From: Mucilaginibacter gossypii
GTDB taxonomy: Bacteria > Bacteroidota > Bacteroidia > Sphingobacteriales > Sphingobacteriaceae
Length of the DNA: 64,000 nt
Reading direction: 5' to 3'
Assembly: GCF_900100945.1 (NCBI RefSeq)
Contig: NZ_FNCG01000008.1
Location: 1-64,000, forward strand
Position numbers and translations under genes: made by a program. Under the pieces are notes generated by a model. It was not told where the DNA came from, did no database searches, and saw nothing but the letters and a program-made list of their open reading frames with translations. Below are positions 54,663 to 63,249 of this stretch, in pieces; position 1 is the first letter of the stretch, and the number at the start of each line of letters is the position of its first letter.

Positions 54663-54917
54663 ATGGAGATCACAACTTACACTGCCTTCAGGCAGCAACT
54701 AAAATCTTTTTTAGATAAGGTGCGGAATGATCATAAGCCTTTGGTAGTGACAAGTGCCAATGCCGAAGATATTGTTGTGATATCGAAAGCTGATTACGAA
54801 AGCATGGAGGAAACTTTCTATCTTTTAAAAAGCCCTAAAAATGCAGAAAGATTACTTCATGGTATCCAGGAATATGAAAAAGGTTTAGGCAAGGAAAGAA
54901 AGCTACTTGAAGAGTGA
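54663..54917 (+). CDS. yefM: YefM/Phd-family antitoxin
   Basis: An 84-aa antitoxin beginning MEITTYTAFRQQLKSFLDKV with the Phd/YefM signature VVTSANAEDIVVISKADYESMEET (in parts, residues 28-52) and an acidic, flexible C-terminus. It neutralises the YoeB toxin encoded next and represses the operon. The two genes overlap by 4 bases (GTGA). Confidence 0.92.
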   Translation: MEITTYTAFRQQLKSFLDKVRNDHKPLVVTSANAEDIVVISKADYESMEETFYLLKSPKNAERLLHGIQEYEKGLGKERKLLEE

Positions 54918-55168
54918 AGATAATTTTCCAAAACCCTGCATGGGAAGATTACCTTTATTGGCAAACGACAGATAAATCTATTTTAAAGAAGATCAACTCT
55001 CTTATCAAAGAAATAGAACGAACTCCATATGAAGGAAGTGGAAAGCCCGAACCTTTAAAACATAATTTAGCTGGCTGGTGGTCGCGCCGGATAAATCTCG
55101 AACACAGGCTAATTTACAGAGTAGAAGCAGACGCGATATTTATTCTGCAATGCAGATATCATTATTGA
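54914..55168 (+). CDS. yoeB: YoeB toxin (mRNA interferase)
   Basis: An 84-aa toxin with a GTG start overlapping the antitoxin stop. Motifs are as in YoeB: FQNPAWEDYLYWQTTD, GSGKPEPLKHNLAGWWSRRINLEHRLIYRV (in parts) and final CRYHY. Glu of GKPE, Arg of SRRI/EHR and the His-Tyr pair are all present, so it should be active. It cleaves mRNA in the ribosomal A site under stress when the antitoxin is degraded. It is about 50% identical by eye to the YoeB encoded at 30622, but its antitoxin belongs to another family. Confidence 0.94.
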   Translation: MKIIFQNPAWEDYLYWQTTDKSILKKINSLIKEIERTPYEGSGKPEPLKHNLAGWWSRRINLEHRLIYRVEADAIFILQCRYHY

Positions 55169-57479: not shown

Positions 57480-58520
57480 ATGGCAAGCAGATTATTAAAA
57501 CAAGTAGTAGGTATTGATGTGGCTCAAAAAGAGCTGGTGGTTTCTATCGGCAAGATGGATGAGCAGGCAGTTATAACAGTTTATGCGAACAAGATTTTTC
57601 CAAACAATGAAAAAGGATTTGCAAACCTGGAAGTATGGATAAACAAGCAAAGCATCCCCCAATATCCATTAAGATATGTAATGGAGGCCACAGGTGTATA
57701 CCACGAGCGCCTTGCTTATTATCTGGCCGGCAAAGGGTATGCTGTAAGTATTGTCATGCCCAACAAGATCTCAAACTTCTTCAAGACACTGGAGATCAAA
57801 ACAATTACCGATAAATCAATGTCTTTTGCCATAGCCATGTTCGGACTTGAAAAGAAACTGGATAACTGGGTACAACCCAAAAGGGTGTTCAGGACCCTGC
57901 GGCAGATAACCCGTGAAAGAGAACAACTTATTGCAGAAAGAACCATGATCAAGAACCAGCTACATGCTGAACAGTCCGAAGCTTTTCCGGGGGAAGATAC
58001 TATCCGCAGAATGATGGACAGGATAAAGATGATTGGTGAACAACTTAAAGAAATACTTACTGAGATTAGAACAGCTGTAGCACAGGACAAACATTTAAAA
58101 CAAACACTGGCTACCATTACCACTATTCCTGGAGTCGGCTTATTAACGGCCACTGTGATCATAGCCGAAACAAACGGCTTTGAGCTGATCAGGAGTAAAA
58201 AGCAGCTGACCAGTTACGCCGGGCTGGATGTCAGGGAAAAAGAATCCGGCTCATCCGTTAAGGGCAAACCCAAGATATCTAAAAGGGGGAACAAGCATTT
58301 ACGAAAAGCCATGCACTTACCTGCATTAGCGGCCATAAGACATTCAGAAAGATATAAAGCTATATTTGTCCGGATCGTATCCCGAAATAGCGTGAAAATG
58401 AAAGCTACTGTAGCAGTACAAAGAAAATTATTGGAGATGGTATACACTATATACAAAACCAACAAACCATTCGAAAAAGACTACCTTCAACAGAATGCAC
58501 ACATATCCGAAAATAGTTAG
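57480..58520 (+). CDS. IS110-family transposase
   Basis: A 346-aa recombinase of the DEDD/Tnp20 type, full length. The RuvC-like part has GIDVAQKEL (D13) and YVMEATGVY (E69). The expected D-x-x-D pair reads D110-K-S-M113, so the fourth acidic residue is not where it usually is. The C-terminal Tnp20 domain holds TIPGVGLLTATVIIAE and GLDVREKESGSSVKGKPKISKRGNKHLRKA (in parts), including the candidate catalytic Ser. Such enzymes are guided by a structured bridge RNA. The gene is not broken, so the copy may be active unless the Met113 change matters. Confidence 0.92.
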   Translation: MASRLLKQVVGIDVAQKELVVSIGKMDEQAVITVYANKIFPNNEKGFANLEVWINKQSIPQYPLRYVMEATGVYHERLAYYLAGKGYAVSIVMPNKISNFFKTLEIKTITDKSMSFAIAMFGLEKKLDNWVQPKRVFRTLRQITREREQLIAERTMIKNQLHAEQSEAFPGEDTIRRMMDRIKMIGEQLKEILTEIRTAVAQDKHLKQTLATITTIPGVGLLTATVIIAETNGFELIRSKKQLTSYAGLDVREKESGSSVKGKPKISKRGNKHLRKAMHLPALAAIRHSERYKAIFVRIVSRNSVKMKATVAVQRKLLEMVYTIYKTNKPFEKDYLQQNAHISENS

Positions 58521-58730: not shown

Positions 58731-59615
58731 TCAACTAAACACCGCCAGCACTCCGAAATAAACCAGCATACAACCCGAGCTGATGAAATTCATACGCATG
58801 GCGTTTTTAAAATTAGCGTTGGCTGTCGATCGCCCTACTTTATAAAACCAATAATTAAAAAAGAAAAATATTGGCGCGGCGCATACTATAAAGAAATAAA
58901 AGTTAAGCATCATCCCAGCCAGGTGCCAATACCAGTAAGAAAGGGCTATCCCCGCGGCAAACAATACGCCCGAAAAAATAAAGGAGCCTTTGTAGCCTAA
59001 AACGATACTAAGCGTTTTATCGCCCCGCCTGCTGTCTTCTTCATGCTGATAAACCTGGGTTAAGGGGTATGATGCCCCAATGAGGCAGGAGCTGATAGCC
59101 CCCGGAATAATCAGGCCTAAATCCCAATGACCAAACAGGCTCGTACCGGTCAAAGCGGTATAGGTGGTGTAATAAATAAAACATCCCTGGAAAATAAACA
59201 CCGTTAAAAAACTGATAATCGGATATTTTTTTAACCGGGTAGCAGGATGGCTGTATAATTTTGACATAATGCCATAAATGAGCACCGCAAAGGCAAACTC
59301 CCAGCTAATGATAAAGCCAAGCAAAAACGCAATAACCTCCAGCAGAATGGAAAAATAATACAGGCTGAGATCCACTTCGGGCGGTTTGGCTAACAGGGCA
59401 ATGCTATCTTCATCCTTATCAAAATAACTGTTATAGCCATTGCTGGCCGGGAAAGCAAGGAAATGCCATATAAAAAATACAAGTACGGCTGTTGAAGCTT
59501 TCACCACATCGGCCTGGCTAAAGGCAAACAGGTACACCGGCAGCAAAAAAACAGAAAACACAAACCTTAAATGCGCAAATGCCGACCGGGTAGGGATAAA
59601 TTGTTTAAACTTCAT
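58731..59615 (-). CDS. UbiA-family prenyltransferase
   Basis: A 294-aa membrane protein with about 8 helices. The two acidic signatures of UbiA enzymes are present: N-x-x-x-D type NGYNSYFDKDEDS (about residues 60-72) and a second YQHEEDSRRGDKT (about 190-202). They bind Mg-prenyl diphosphate. The family attaches isoprenoid chains to aromatic or quinone precursors. It is not a classic UbiA, MenA or haem farnesyltransferase by its motifs, so the acceptor is open. It is divergent from the YceI/type III PKS operon and may prenylate the product of that polyketide synthase. Confidence 0.88.
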   Translation of the reverse strand: MKFKQFIPTRSAFAHLRFVFSVFLLPVYLFAFSQADVVKASTAVLVFFIWHFLAFPASNGYNSYFDKDEDSIALLAKPPEVDLSLYYFSILLEVIAFLLGFIISWEFAFAVLIYGIMSKLYSHPATRLKKYPIISFLTVFIFQGCFIYYTTYTALTGTSLFGHWDLGLIIPGAISSCLIGASYPLTQVYQHEEDSRRGDKTLSIVLGYKGSFIFSGVLFAAGIALSYWYWHLAGMMLNFYFFIVCAAPIFFFFNYWFYKVGRSTANANFKNAMRMNFISSGCMLVYFGVLAVFS

Positions 59616-59645
59616 GGCGTGTTTTTACATTATAATTACTGCCGG

Positions 59646-59664
59646 AGGCAACATCAGGTTGCCT
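59646..59664. promoter_or_regulatory. Small inverted repeat between ubiA-like and YceI genes
   Basis: AGGCAAC (59646-59652) and GTTGCCT (59658-59664) with a 5-base spacer lie midway in the divergent gap. A candidate operator serving both directions, or a leader hairpin of the UbiA gene. Confidence 0.35.
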
Positions 59665-59719
59665 GATTATGGTTATAAACATACAACCTTAAGTACAAAA
59701 TTCCTTCAGTATAAATTAT

Positions 59720-59727
59720 TATGTTTG
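59720..59727 (+). promoter_or_regulatory. -7 promoter box of the YceI / polyketide operon
   Basis: TATGTTTG matches TAnnTTTG and is 18 bases before the YceI ATG. It is the probable promoter of the whole plus-strand operon. No TTG -33 element at the right distance. Confidence 0.5.
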
Positions 59728-59745
59728 AAACAGCGTTAATGTAAC

Positions 59746-60273
59746 ATGAATAAGAAAATTTATATAGTTGTACTTTTAATTTTCGCGACGACAGCGGGCT
59801 TCGCGCAAACGGTATCTAAATCAGATATCAGCTTTAAGATTAAAAACCTTGGCTTTAATGTCGGGGGTACCTTCGGCGGTTTGCAGGCCGATATTAAGTT
59901 TAAGCCTAATGACCTGGAGGGCAGCTCTATTGAAGCGTCAGTGTTATCCAGCACTGTTAATACCGATAACGAAAGCCGCGATAGGCATCTTAAAAGCGAA
60001 GATTATTTTGACGTAATTAAATATCCAAAGATCACGCTAAAGTCAGTTTCCTTTAAACGTAAAAGCGGGAGCAACTATACCGGTAATTTTAACGTAACTA
60101 TAAGAGATAAAACAAAGTTGATTGAAGTACCTTTTACGTATACGGAATCAGGTAATACAGCACAACTGAAAGGAAACTTTATGATTTTGAGGACAGATTT
60201 TGGCATAGGCGGCAAAAACCTGATCCTTTCAAATGAGGCCAATGTTTCGGTTGAGGCGGAGATCAGCAAATAA
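59746..60273 (+). CDS. YceI-family lipid-binding protein (periplasmic)
   Basis: A 175-aa lipocalin-like protein. Signal peptide residues 1-20 (ending GFAQT). Family motifs: SDISFKIKNLGFNVGGTFGGLQADIKF (in parts, 25-52), ASVLSSTVNTDNESRDRHLKSEDYFDV (in parts), KYPKITLKSVSFKR, and the final FGIGGKNLILSNEANVSVEAEI. YceI proteins bind polyprenyl chains such as those of isoprenoid quinones in their barrel. As the first gene of an operon with a type III PKS, an FAD oxidoreductase and a methyltransferase, next to a UbiA prenyltransferase, it could carry the lipid product across the periplasm. Confidence 0.92.
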   Translation: MNKKIYIVVLLIFATTAGFAQTVSKSDISFKIKNLGFNVGGTFGGLQADIKFKPNDLEGSSIEASVLSSTVNTDNESRDRHLKSEDYFDVIKYPKITLKSVSFKRKSGSNYTGNFNVTIRDKTKLIEVPFTYTESGNTAQLKGNFMILRTDFGIGGKNLILSNEANVSVEAEISK

Positions 60274-60291
60274 AACGCTTAATCATTTTTA

Positions 60292-61401
60292 ATGGAGAGT
60301 TGCATTAGTGCTATCGGGATAGCAAATCCCGCCAATCGGATTGCCCAGCAGGATATTTACCATTTCATGGCTAACGCCTTTGGGCTGGATGCAACCAATG
60401 CAGCAAGATTAAAGGGGATTTATGACCATTCCGGAATTGATTACCGCTATTCGGTAATTCCTGATTTTGGCTATCGGGATGCGGCAGATTTCACCTTTTT
60501 TGAACAGTCGGCAGGGCTCGAACCATTCCCTGACACACAGAAAAGGTTAAAGCTTTACGAAAAGGAAGCTATCGCCATAGCTGTAAATGCCGCAAAAAGC
60601 TGTCTTCAAAAATTTGGAGATGACATTACCGGCAGCATTACACACCTGGTAACCATTAGCTGTACGGGTATGCACGCACCTGGGATTGATATCGAACTTG
60701 TGGACCGGCTGCAGCTAAACTGCGATACCGAACGTACCTGCATCAACTTTATGGGCTGCTACGGTGCCATAAACGGGCTCAAAGTAGCCGACTATATCTG
60801 CCGCGCCGATGCCGGTGCCAAAGTGCTTGTTGTTAGTGTAGAGCTTTGTACGCTTCATTTTCAAAAAGTGAATACGCTGGATAACTGGGTTGCTAATTCG
60901 CTATTTTCAGATGGGGCTGCTGCCGTTTTGGTCGAAAATACGGCCAATCGTTTAGGCAGCGGCAATTACTTTTTACTCAAAAACTTCTATTCAGAATTTG
61001 TTACTGAAGCACGTAATGAGATGGGTTGGTATGTGGGCAACACAGGTTTTGAAATGAAACTCACCTCCAAGGTATCCAAGCAAATTAAGAAACATATCAA
61101 ATCACTTACCCAGCGCTTTTTGCAAAAGGCCAAAACTAAGATGGATGATATTACTGCTTATGCTGTTCACCCCGGCGGGCGCACCATTTTAGAAGCAGTG
61201 GAAGACGCCCTGGAATTACCTGAAGAAAGCAACGCCTTTGCTTACCAGGTTTTGCAGGAGTACGGTAATATGTCGTCGGCCACAATTTTGTTTGTACTGG
61301 ATAAAATGCTGAAGGCAGGTAACCTGGTCGATCAAAAGATCCTGAGTTTTGCCTTCGGTCCGGGTTTAACCGTTGAAGGGATGATACTTGAAATGCATTA
61401 A
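60292..61401 (+). CDS. Type III polyketide synthase (chalcone/alkylresorcinol synthase fold)
   Basis: A 369-aa homodimeric thiolase-fold enzyme. The Cys-His-Asn triad is seen at C156 (NFMGCYGAINGLK), H293 (AVHPGGRTIL) and N326 (EYGNMSSATI), so it should be active. The C-terminal GFGPG loop reads AFGPGLTVEGM. It condenses malonyl-CoA with a starter, usually a fatty acyl chain in bacteria, to give alkylresorcinols, pyrones or related rings. It lies 18 bases after YceI and 6 bases before the FAD oxidoreductase gene. Chain length of the starter cannot be predicted. Confidence 0.93.
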   Translation: MESCISAIGIANPANRIAQQDIYHFMANAFGLDATNAARLKGIYDHSGIDYRYSVIPDFGYRDAADFTFFEQSAGLEPFPDTQKRLKLYEKEAIAIAVNAAKSCLQKFGDDITGSITHLVTISCTGMHAPGIDIELVDRLQLNCDTERTCINFMGCYGAINGLKVADYICRADAGAKVLVVSVELCTLHFQKVNTLDNWVANSLFSDGAAAVLVENTANRLGSGNYFLLKNFYSEFVTEARNEMGWYVGNTGFEMKLTSKVSKQIKKHIKSLTQRFLQKAKTKMDDITAYAVHPGGRTILEAVEDALELPEESNAFAYQVLQEYGNMSSATILFVLDKMLKAGNLVDQKILSFAFGPGLTVEGMILEMH

Positions 61402-61407
61402 GCCATC

Positions 61408-62532
61408 ATGAGCGATGTAATTGTAATTGGCGGGGGCCTGGCCGGGTTGTTTAACGCCATATTGTTGAACGGTGCCGGTCTGAAGGTTACAGTTATTGAA
61501 AAAAAGACTTACCCCATGCACCGCGTTTGTGGTGAATATATCTCGAACGAGGTGATCCCTTTTTTGTCTTCGTTGGGCATCGACCTTGATGAACTAAACG
61601 TTGCCCGGATCAACAGGCTGGAGGTAACAGCAGCATCTGGTACCAAACTTTCGCAAAAGCTTGACCTGGGCGGTTTTGGTTTAAGCAGGTTTACTTTCGA
61701 TAATTTTCTGTACCAAAAAGCCCTCGCCGAAGGAGTTGATATTTTAACAGGCACACGGGTGGAGGATATTCGTTTTGCTGGCGAAAAATTTGAAGTGGTA
61801 ACTCCCGGCGAAACATTAACAGCCCCGTTGGCTATCGGCTCGTTTGGTAAACGATCCAACCTCGATCAAAAACTTAAACGACCGTTCTTTTATAAACGCA
61901 GCCCATACCTGGCCGTAAAATTCCATTTGCAGATGGATTTCCCACAGGACCTCATCCAGCTTAATAATTATAAAGACGGCTATTGTGGGGTAAGCAAAAC
62001 CGATGGCGACAGGTATTGCATGTGCTATATGGCCCATCGTGATGACCTGCGCAAGTATGGTACTTTACAGGCTTTAGAAGAGAACGTGATCCGCAAAAAC
62101 CCTTACCTCGATGAGATCTTTCGTAACGCCAGGTTTTTACTGGATAAACCTGAAGTGATCAACGAAATCTCCTTTGAGAAAAAAGCGCCTGTTGATAATC
62201 ATATCCTGATGAGCGGAGACACCGCCGGGATGATAGCCCCACTTTGCGGTAACGGCATGACCATGGCCATTCATTCGGCCAAAATCCTTTCCGAAAAGAT
62301 CATTACACACTATAAACCGGGCAGCTTTAATCCTGAAAAGCGCGCCAGCCTTGAGCAGGATTATGCCCAAAGCTGGAACAAACAGTTTGCGCAAAGGCTT
62401 TGGGTTGGCCGGCAGTTACAGCGTTTGTTTGGCAACGATAACATGACGGCCCTTACTTTAAATACGCTCAATCACCTGCCTTCTGTTGCACAATACCTGA
62501 TAAGTAAAACTCACGGCCAACCATTTGTATAG
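61408..62532 (+). CDS. FAD-dependent oxidoreductase (geranylgeranyl-reductase/FixC-like)
   Basis: A 374-aa flavoprotein. It begins VIVIGGGLAGLFNAILL with the GxGxxG dinucleotide motif, followed by CGEYISNEVIPFL. The second FAD motif is GDTAGMIAPLCGNGMTMAIHSA (in parts, near residue 270). The family includes monooxygenases that hydroxylate aromatic rings and saturase-type reductases. Between a type III PKS and a methyltransferase, ring hydroxylation is the likeliest role, as in the srsABC phenolic-lipid system of Streptomyces; reduction of a prenyl chain is the alternative. The 6-base gap to the PKS shows co-translation. Confidence 0.88.
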   Translation: MSDVIVIGGGLAGLFNAILLNGAGLKVTVIEKKTYPMHRVCGEYISNEVIPFLSSLGIDLDELNVARINRLEVTAASGTKLSQKLDLGGFGLSRFTFDNFLYQKALAEGVDILTGTRVEDIRFAGEKFEVVTPGETLTAPLAIGSFGKRSNLDQKLKRPFFYKRSPYLAVKFHLQMDFPQDLIQLNNYKDGYCGVSKTDGDRYCMCYMAHRDDLRKYGTLQALEENVIRKNPYLDEIFRNARFLLDKPEVINEISFEKKAPVDNHILMSGDTAGMIAPLCGNGMTMAIHSAKILSEKIITHYKPGSFNPEKRASLEQDYAQSWNKQFAQRLWVGRQLQRLFGNDNMTALTLNTLNHLPSVAQYLISKTHGQPFV

Positions 62533-62550
62533 TTCAGGCGTATATATTAT

Positions 62551-63249
62551 ATGCCCGATTTAAGTTACCGTACCGATATGCTGGAGATCATGGATGATTT
62601 TGATCTCCCATCAGCCGAAATAAACCCAGTGCTTGAAGGTTTGGGAAAGATGAATGCCTTGTTTGGTGGTCATAAAAGCATCATCGGCTCGTTGAAAAAG
62701 CTTCCCATCTACAATGGTTATTCGGTAATTGATTGGGGCTGTGGAGGAGGAGACACCCTGATAGCTATTGCTAAATGGGCCGAAAGCAAGCAAATCGATC
62801 TTAACTTAAACGGCGTTGACGCAGCACAGGCTGCTATTAATTATGCCCGAAAACAGGCAATGGATTATAACAATATTAATTTTATCCAAGCCGATGTTAT
62901 TGACGAAGCATATCTCATTAAACCGGCTGATGTGATCATTTGCAGCCTGTTTACACACCATTTTGATGATGACCGCTGGATTAAGCTCATCAAAAACATG
63001 CAAGCCTCGGCACAAAAAGGAATTATCATTACCGACCTGCACCGTCACTGGCTTTTATATCATGCCATAGTGTTTATAACCCATGTTTTTACCCGTAGTG
63101 CCATGGCCCAAAATGATGGTCCGCTTTCGGTTAAGCGCGGTTTTAAAAGGTACGAATTGTTAGCTTTATTAAAAAAAGCACAAATTGATAATTTTAAATT
63201 AACATGGCGCTGGCCTTTCAGGTGGGAGTTAATCATCTATAAATCGTAG
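62551..63249 (+). CDS. Class I SAM-dependent methyltransferase
   Basis: A 232-aa methyltransferase. SAM motif I is VIDWGCGGGDTLIAIA (about residue 58), and motif II/III parts are GVDAAQAAINYAR and ADVIICSLFTHHFDD. The C-terminal end includes ITDLHRHWLLYHAIVFI, typical of the small-molecule methyltransferases linked to type III PKS genes in Bacteroidota. It is the last biosynthetic gene of the operon, 18 bases after the oxidoreductase. O- or C-methylation of a phenolic lipid is likely. Confidence 0.9.
   Translation: MPDLSYRTDMLEIMDDFDLPSAEINPVLEGLGKMNALFGGHKSIIGSLKKLPIYNGYSVIDWGCGGGDTLIAIAKWAESKQIDLNLNGVDAAQAAINYARKQAMDYNNINFIQADVIDEAYLIKPADVIICSLFTHHFDDDRWIKLIKNMQASAQKGIIITDLHRHWLLYHAIVFITHVFTRSAMAQNDGPLSVKRGFKRYELLALLKKAQIDNFKLTWRWPFRWELIIYKS

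What the first reader, a model, noticed from the sequence alone, without database searches (positions are those of the whole stretch)
58731..63249. Type III PKS locus joined to UbiA prenyltransferase and YceI lipid carrier
Seen: intact Cys-His-Asn type III PKS, then FAD oxidoreductase and SAM methyltransferase with 6-18 base gaps, preceded by YceI; a UbiA enzyme with both Asp-rich motifs is divergent. Known: in Streptomyces srsABC and in mycobacterial type III PKS operons, a PKS, a flavin hydroxylase and a methyltransferase make methylated phenolic lipids and quinones; YceI binds polyprenyl quinones; UbiA attaches prenyl chains to aromatic rings. Inference: the locus may make a polyketide-derived isoprenoid or alkyl quinone exported or bound by YceI, an alternative electron carrier or membrane lipid. 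I know of no characterised pathway combining all five.
Basis: partly seen in the sequence, partly recalled or inferred. Interest (0 to 1): 0.75.

Follow-up and report, generated by a model that had tools for sequence, protein, structure and literature searches.

The report
Bacterial prenylated polyketide lipid gene set
A small set of genes, found across hundreds of Bacteroidota species, pairs an enzyme that builds an aromatic ring with a membrane enzyme that probably hangs an isoprenoid tail on it, pointing to an uncharacterised membrane lipid or quinone.

Summary
UbiA (58731-59615, -), YceI (59746-60273), type III PKS (60292-61401), FAD enzyme (61408-62532) and SAM methyltransferase (62551-63249) are intact, with 6-18 bp gaps, and the PKS keeps Cys156-His293-Asn326. 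One detail is only partly right: the UbiA Asp motifs are variants (NSxxDxD and QxxxD).

In 395 Bacteroidota genomes, 26 carry this PKS type and exactly the same 26 carry this UbiA, including several where the two are unlinked. In the window's family UbiA occurs in 61 genomes; all 61 have the PKS, and 61 of 66 PKS genomes have UbiA. All 80 best UbiA loci from named genomes sit beside the PKS, at least 65 as UbiA-PKS-MT-FAD. YceI is a recurrent but optional neighbour. The histidine kinase downstream belongs to a phosphate-uptake block.

Most likely the set makes a C-prenylated, methylated and ring-oxidised polyketide phenol or quinone, that is the known PKS-MT-FAD lipid pathway (hierridin, PkQ, srs) with a prenylation step added. 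The product, the starter unit and any respiratory role are inferred, not shown. I found no description of this set in the open papers held.

The parts
58731..59615 (-). UbiA-superfamily membrane prenyltransferase, unclassified subfamily, 294 aa, variant metal motifs NSxxDxD / QxxxD
   Evidence: PF01040 75 bits; AF2 pLDDT 96.4; VIA Z 23.0, rmsd 3.3 over 271 residues to Archaeoglobus UbiA 4tq4; motifs; distinct from the genome's MqnP-like, CtaB and EboC UbiAs
59616..59745 (.). 130-bp divergent intergenic region; contains TATGTTTG at 59720-59727 (fits the Bacteroidota TAnnTTTG -7 motif, from own knowledge) and a hairpin at 59646-59664
   Evidence: sequence read; hairpin; regulatory role not tested
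59746..60273 (+). YceI-family protein with N-terminal signal-like sequence (MNKKIYIVVLLIFATTAGFA), candidate periplasmic isoprenoid-lipid binder; optional component
   Evidence: PF04264 103 bits; PDB matches to polyisoprenoid-binding proteins 5w2x etc., E 2e-13
60292..61401 (+). Type III polyketide synthase, 369 aa, C156-H293-N326 triad
61408..62532 (+). FAD-dependent oxidoreductase of the geranylgeranyl-reductase/UbiH/flavin-halogenase-like superfamily, with CGE motif (HRVCGEYIS); probable ring hydroxylase
   Evidence: TIGR02032 96.5 bits, below its cut-off of 158.8; invariant motifs
62551..63249 (+). Class I SAM methyltransferase (PRK06202-like), probable ring C- or O-methyltransferase
   Evidence: NF004851 141.5 bits, below its cut-off of 243

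Best explanation
This is a conserved Bacteroidota pathway that makes a prenylated polyketide phenol or quinone lipid. Steps, most of them inferred: (1) the type III PKS extends an acyl-CoA starter with malonyl-CoA and cyclises it to a resorcinol-type ring; (2) the membrane UbiA enzyme transfers a prenyl group from a prenyl diphosphate to that ring; (3) the FAD enzyme hydroxylates or oxidises the ring, giving a hydroquinone or quinone; (4) the methyltransferase methylates ring carbon or oxygen; (5) in some lineages, including this one, a periplasmic YceI protein binds or carries the lipid product. Shown here: intact enzymes, the strict PKS-UbiA co-occurrence, the operon structure, the UbiA fold. 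Inferred: order of steps, substrates, product, physiological role. Wide vertical conservation in single copy suggests a membrane lipid or redox carrier rather than a strain-specific antibiotic.
For: UbiA and this PKS type occur in exactly the same 26 of 395 phylum genomes; in at least six of these (G271, G577, G361, G341, G353, G385) UbiA is not next to the PKS, so the link is not mere synteny. The FAD enzyme is present in 26/26 and the MT in 24/26. In the family, all 61 UbiA-positive genomes have the PKS and 61 of 66 PKS genomes have UbiA. 80/80 UbiA loci from named genomes have the PKS adjacent, and 65 show exactly UbiA-PKS-MT-FAD on one strand. The related FAD (about 44% identical) and MT also accompany a PKS in loci without UbiA but with FabA-like, ketosynthase and PPTase genes, so FAD and MT most likely act on the ring and UbiA is the added tailoring step. 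UbiA fold confirmed. MT-FAD-PKS operons are known to make alkylresorcinol lipids (PMC10896814) and polyketide quinones (PMC9927152). The own genome has separate MqnP-like, CtaB and EboC UbiAs. YceI relatives in the PDB are named polyisoprenoid-binding.
Against: No product, substrate or expression data. The UbiA metal motifs deviate from canonical, so prenyl transfer is not certain. Five PKS-positive family genomes lack UbiA (G195, G151, G111, G172, G090), so the PKS product can be made without it. Two genomes lack the MT. The FAD enzyme also resembles geranylgeranyl reductases, so it might reduce a prenyl chain. No polyprenyl synthase or acyl-activating gene was identified as a conserved neighbour.
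Confidence: 0.62

Rival explanations
1. The locus makes a non-prenylated alkyl phenol or alkyl quinone like PkQ or hierridin; the UbiA-fold enzyme does something else to it (cyclisation, transfer of another group) or serves a coupled but separate step.
For: UbiA metal motifs are variant, QxxxD for DxxxD. PKS-MT-FAD sets persist without UbiA in five family genomes and in FabA/ketosynthase-linked loci. PKS-MT-FAD alone makes alkyl lipids in Planctomycetota and Actinobacteria (PMC10896814, PMC9927152).
Against: All 61 family and 26 phylum UbiA genomes have the PKS. The only solved close folds are prenyl or phosphoribosyl transferases of polyprenyl substrates. Motif variation also occurs in the genome's own CtaB.
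Confidence: 0.2
2. A prenylated polyketide is made, but the FAD enzyme is a prenyl-chain reductase (geranylgeranyl-reductase-like) and the product is a phenolic lipid with a saturated isoprenoid chain, not a quinone.
For: Best NCBIfam profile is the geranylgeranyl reductase family TIGR02032, 96.5 bits.
Against: Below the TIGR02032 cut-off of 158.8 bits. The same FAD family sits with PKS and MT where UbiA is absent, where there is no dedicated prenyl chain to reduce. Flavin halogenases and monooxygenases rank higher among solved relatives.
Confidence: 0.1
3. YceI and the downstream histidine kinase are passengers; only UbiA, PKS, MT and FAD form the system.
For: The kinase is followed by PhoU_div and PHO4 phosphate genes and is absent near all 80 Chitinophagaceae-type loci. 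YceI is adjacent only in the window's sub-clade within the family and in 9/80 other loci.
Against: YceI recurs near the operon more often than its genome density predicts (9 observed, 1.07 expected, P 1.4e-6), in at least three different positions. It stays next to the PKS in three genomes that lack UbiA. An isoprenoid-binding-protein gene is also reported in a T3PKS operon of Saltatorellus ferox (PMC10896814).
Confidence: 0.5

Closest known systems
hidABC (hierridin) and the Planctomycetota MT-FAD-T3PKS operons (PMC10896814, PMC8086630)
   Same: [quoted passage not shown] the Planctomycetota PKSs make alkylresorcinols.
   Different: No UbiA gene as a regular partner. One cyanobacterium (Raphidiopsis mediterranea) has a prenyltransferase gene in such a cluster, judged there to be a horizontal acquisition. 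Sequence relation of the MT and FAD enzymes to HidA/HidB not tested here.
pkqABC / srsABC polyketide quinones (PMC9927152)
   Same: T3PKS followed by methyltransferase and oxidoreductase; product a lipid benzoquinone used in low-oxygen respiration.
   Different: Alkyl tail from the PKS starter, no prenyltransferase reported. SrsB is ICMT-like (own knowledge), whereas the locus MT is a class I SAM enzyme.
Plant T3PKS plus UbiA-type prenyltransferase pathways (cannabinoids, daurichromenic acid; PMC8309193)
   Same: A type III PKS makes the resorcinol ring and a membrane UbiA-type enzyme prenylates it.
   Different: Plant, plastid enzymes; not homologous as a gene set; different oxidative tailoring.
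Bacteroidota T3PKS-MT-FAD loci with FabA-like, ketosynthase and PPTase genes (L061-L063, L139)
   Same: Homologous FAD (about 44%) and MT (about 34-38%) enzymes next to a T3PKS.
   Different: PKS only about 30% identical, and UbiA absent; fatty-acid-type genes sit in the same cluster.

Membership tests
Type III polyketide synthase | CHS-fold N and C domains with Cys-His-Asn triad | tested here: met
   PF00195/PF02797; C156/H293/N326 invariant and aligned to PKS18 triad
PKS18-type long-chain acyl tunnel | Small or hydrophobic tunnel residues (S143, C205, N208, A209, L266, L348 of PKS18, PMC6274091) | tested here: inconclusive
   C205 kept as C186, but A209 is F190, L266 is W246, N208 is H189, L348 is S328; starter length cannot be read from this
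UbiA prenyltransferase superfamily | Nine-helix UbiA fold | tested here: met
   AF2 pLDDT 96.4; VIA Z 23.0, rmsd 3.3, 271 aligned to 4tq4
UbiA prenyltransferase superfamily | Canonical NDxxDxxxD and DxxxD metal motifs | tested here: not met
   Motifs read NSxxDxD and QxxxD; D66, D68, Q190, D194 invariant in 60/60. CtaB in the same genome also departs from the canonical pattern.
UbiA prenyltransferase superfamily | Transfers a prenyl group to an acceptor | not testable with these tools
   needs biochemistry
hidABC / pkqABC type operon | T3PKS, methyltransferase and FAD oxidoreductase in one operon | tested here: met
   gene order differs (PKS first)
hidABC / pkqABC type operon | Long-alkyl resorcinol or quinone product | not testable with these tools
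   no chemistry available
Geranylgeranyl reductase family TIGR02032 | Score above the curated cut-off of 158.8 bits | tested here: not met
   96.5 bits
DpgA (NF042429) | Score above the curated cut-off of 425 bits | tested here: not met
   149.8 bits
YceI polyisoprenoid-binding family | YceI domain above the Pfam cut-off | tested here: met
   103 bits against 23.7
YceI polyisoprenoid-binding family | Binds a polyisoprenoid lipid | not testable with these tools
   inferred from relatives in the PDB

The most novel reading that the evidence does not exclude
The gene set makes a previously unknown class of bacterial prenylquinone whose ring is built from malonyl-CoA by a type III PKS rather than from chorismate, and it serves as a second, conditional membrane redox carrier beside menaquinone in a large part of the Bacteroidota, handled in some lineages by a dedicated YceI protein.
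Probability: 0.22. Interest if true: 0.85.

Novelty: new variant of a known kind. Interest (0 to 1): 0.57.

Why it matters
If the product is a prenylated polyketide quinone, many common soil and freshwater bacteria carry an uncharacterised membrane lipid, possibly a second respiratory quinone made without the shikimate route. The set also gives compact microbial T3PKS-UbiA pairs comparable to the plant cannabinoid-type route, and one gene deletion plus lipid mass spectrometry would test it directly.

Tried and rejected
Rejected: the downstream histidine kinase as a pathway regulator (it heads a PhoU_div-PHO4 phosphate block and is absent near the operon elsewhere). Rejected: the UbiA being the menaquinone or heme enzyme (the genome has separate MqnP-like and CtaB proteins). 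Considered: UbiA as an accidental neighbour; rejected by co-occurrence where unlinked. Considered: reading starter length from PKS18 tunnel residues; mixed, so left open. Tried: a second PDB search with a relative's PKS to align ArsC or ArsB and test the Trp281 resorcinol marker; ArsC was not among the matches shown, so the residue could not be placed. Tried: literature search for T3PKS with UbiA or YceI in Bacteroidota; nothing found in the open-licence library, which lacks most subscription journals. Neighbours of unlinked UbiA genes were inspected: methyltransferase-like genes lie next to UbiA in the f9 loci examined (match below the Pfam cut-off) and in G341 (L120-L123), but the f5 and f10 loci share no such gene, so no further pathway member is claimed. 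Sequence search of the PDB with the UbiA profile gave no hit; only fold comparison worked.

Full report
OBSERVATION. The window lies in a 7.1-Mb genome (45 contigs) of unnamed species; relatives place it in the Bacteroidota. The five genes are present, intact and in the stated order and strands. Pfam confirms UbiA, YceI, chalcone/stilbene synthase N and C domains, an FAD-binding enzyme and a SAM methyltransferase. Gaps are 18, 6 and 18 bp in the YceI-PKS-FAD-MT run, and UbiA is divergent across 130 bp. The PKS triad is C156-H293-N326, invariant in relatives and aligned with C175-H313-N346 of mycobacterial PKS18. One detail needed correction: the UbiA metal motifs are variants, NSxxDxD and QxxxD, with D66, D68, Q190 and D194 invariant in 60 relatives.

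CONSERVATION. In 201 genomes of the same family, 66 carry an orthologous PKS at 39% identity or more, counting one split by a contig end. UbiA of this subfamily occurs in 61 genomes, all of which have the PKS; no UbiA was found in the 135 genomes without it (Fisher P 4e-46; phylogenetic non-independence makes this P value optimistic). Five PKS genomes lack UbiA: G195, G151, G111, G172, G090. In G055 and G020 UbiA is present but on another contig. Twenty-kilobase neighbourhoods show UbiA, PKS, MT and FAD together across the family, with three different arrangements.

Across 395 genomes of the phylum, the strong PKS type (E at most 1e-128) is in 26 genomes and the strong UbiA type (E at most 1e-80) is in exactly the same 26. 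In at least six of them UbiA lies elsewhere in the genome. The FAD enzyme is in all 26 and the methyltransferase in 24. These 80 are the closest to one Chitinophagaceae query, so they are taxonomically biased. The search profiles were built from PKS-linked UbiAs, which could favour linked copies; the whole-genome searches partly guard against this, because they would have reported equally similar UbiAs in PKS-less genomes.

A maximum-likelihood tree of 63 PKSs puts the UbiA-associated ones in one group apart from PKSs linked to FabA-like/ketosynthase/PPTase genes or to an ICMT-type methyltransferase. Two UbiA-less PKSs (G172, G090) are nested inside it, and support for the whole group is modest, 83/50.

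WHICH NEIGHBOURS BELONG. UbiA, PKS and FAD are the core, with MT nearly so. YceI is adjacent in the window's sub-clade only (L036-L038, L040-L042, L044-L046). YceI genes are common (3-10 per genome), but they lie within 6 kb of the operon in 9 of the 80 named loci against 1.07 expected (P 1.4e-6; related species not removed), in different positions. YceI also stays beside the PKS in three genomes that lack UbiA. It is therefore a recurrent optional partner. The histidine kinase 9 bp downstream is followed by PhoU_div and PHO4 phosphate genes and is absent near the 80 other loci, so I exclude it.

MECHANISM. The UbiA protein has a high-confidence UbiA fold (pLDDT 96.4; VIA Z 23.0, rmsd 3.3, 271 aligned to Archaeoglobus UbiA 4tq4, with soluble prenyl synthases next at Z about 14). 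It is not the genome's MqnP-like, CtaB or EboC protein. Homologues of the FAD enzyme (about 44% identity) and of the MT also sit beside a different T3PKS in loci that carry FabA-like, ketosynthase and PPTase genes and no UbiA. That contrast suggests that FAD and MT work on the aromatic ring in both settings, while UbiA adds a prenyl tail in this one. Known PKS-MT-FAD operons make alkylresorcinols and methylated derivatives (PMC10896814) and lipid quinones that act in low-oxygen respiration (PMC9927152). I therefore propose a prenylated, methylated, oxidised polyketide phenol or quinone. Starter length is undecided: of the PKS18 tunnel residues listed in PMC6274091, C205 is kept but A209 and L266 become Phe and Trp. 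The order of steps, prenyl chain length and physiological role are not shown.

COMPARISON. The trio is like the hid/pkq/srs operons in gene content; sequence membership of the MT and FAD enzymes in those families was not tested. The UbiA addition is the difference. A prenyltransferase in a hierridin-like cluster has been noted in one cyanobacterium (PMC8086630), and plants pair T3PKS with UbiA-type prenyltransferases in cannabinoid-type routes (PMC8309193). A gene for a lipid/isoprenoid-binding protein in a Planctomycetota T3PKS operon (PMC10896814) parallels the YceI link. I found no paper describing the Bacteroidota set, but the library holds open-licence papers only.

VERDICT. Observation confirmed. 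The functional link of UbiA to the PKS set is strong, the YceI link moderate, and the quinone and electron-carrier reading open. New variant of a known kind; interest 0.57.

Noticed in passing
window 57480-58520: IS110-family transposase gene (PF01548/PF02371) next to the UbiA gene, between it and a DUF885 gene.
   Followed up: no
window 54663-54917 and 54914-55168: Phd/YefM-YoeB toxin-antitoxin pair downstream of uvrA.
   Followed up: partly
window 63259 onward; L036:13259-16054: Histidine kinase, PhoU_div and PHO4 phosphate block conserved next to the locus in many family genomes but not elsewhere.
   Followed up: yes
L061, L062, L063, L139: A second Bacteroidota T3PKS-MT-FAD set clustered with FabA-like, ketosynthase and PPTase genes; its product may be an alkyl analogue.
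   Followed up: partly
L059, L060, L064, L065, L137, L138: T3PKS next to an ICMT-family methyltransferase (BpsAB-like pair), in four genomes of the window's genus and in two genomes of other families.
   Followed up: no
f24 genomes, e.g. L113, L114: PKS lies 10-13 kb from a contig end in many genomes, suggesting a conserved place near a repeat such as an rRNA operon; these PKSs have a different, FAD_binding_3-type oxidoreductase and a distant unlinked UbiA.
   Followed up: partly
L219: A record labelled Williamsia sp. MAG carries the Bacteroidota UbiA-PKS operon, probably a misbinned contig.
   Followed up: no
G562 and G385 (L105, L111): Both f10 genomes keep PKS, UbiA and FAD but lack the methyltransferase family, so their product may be unmethylated.
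   Followed up: no
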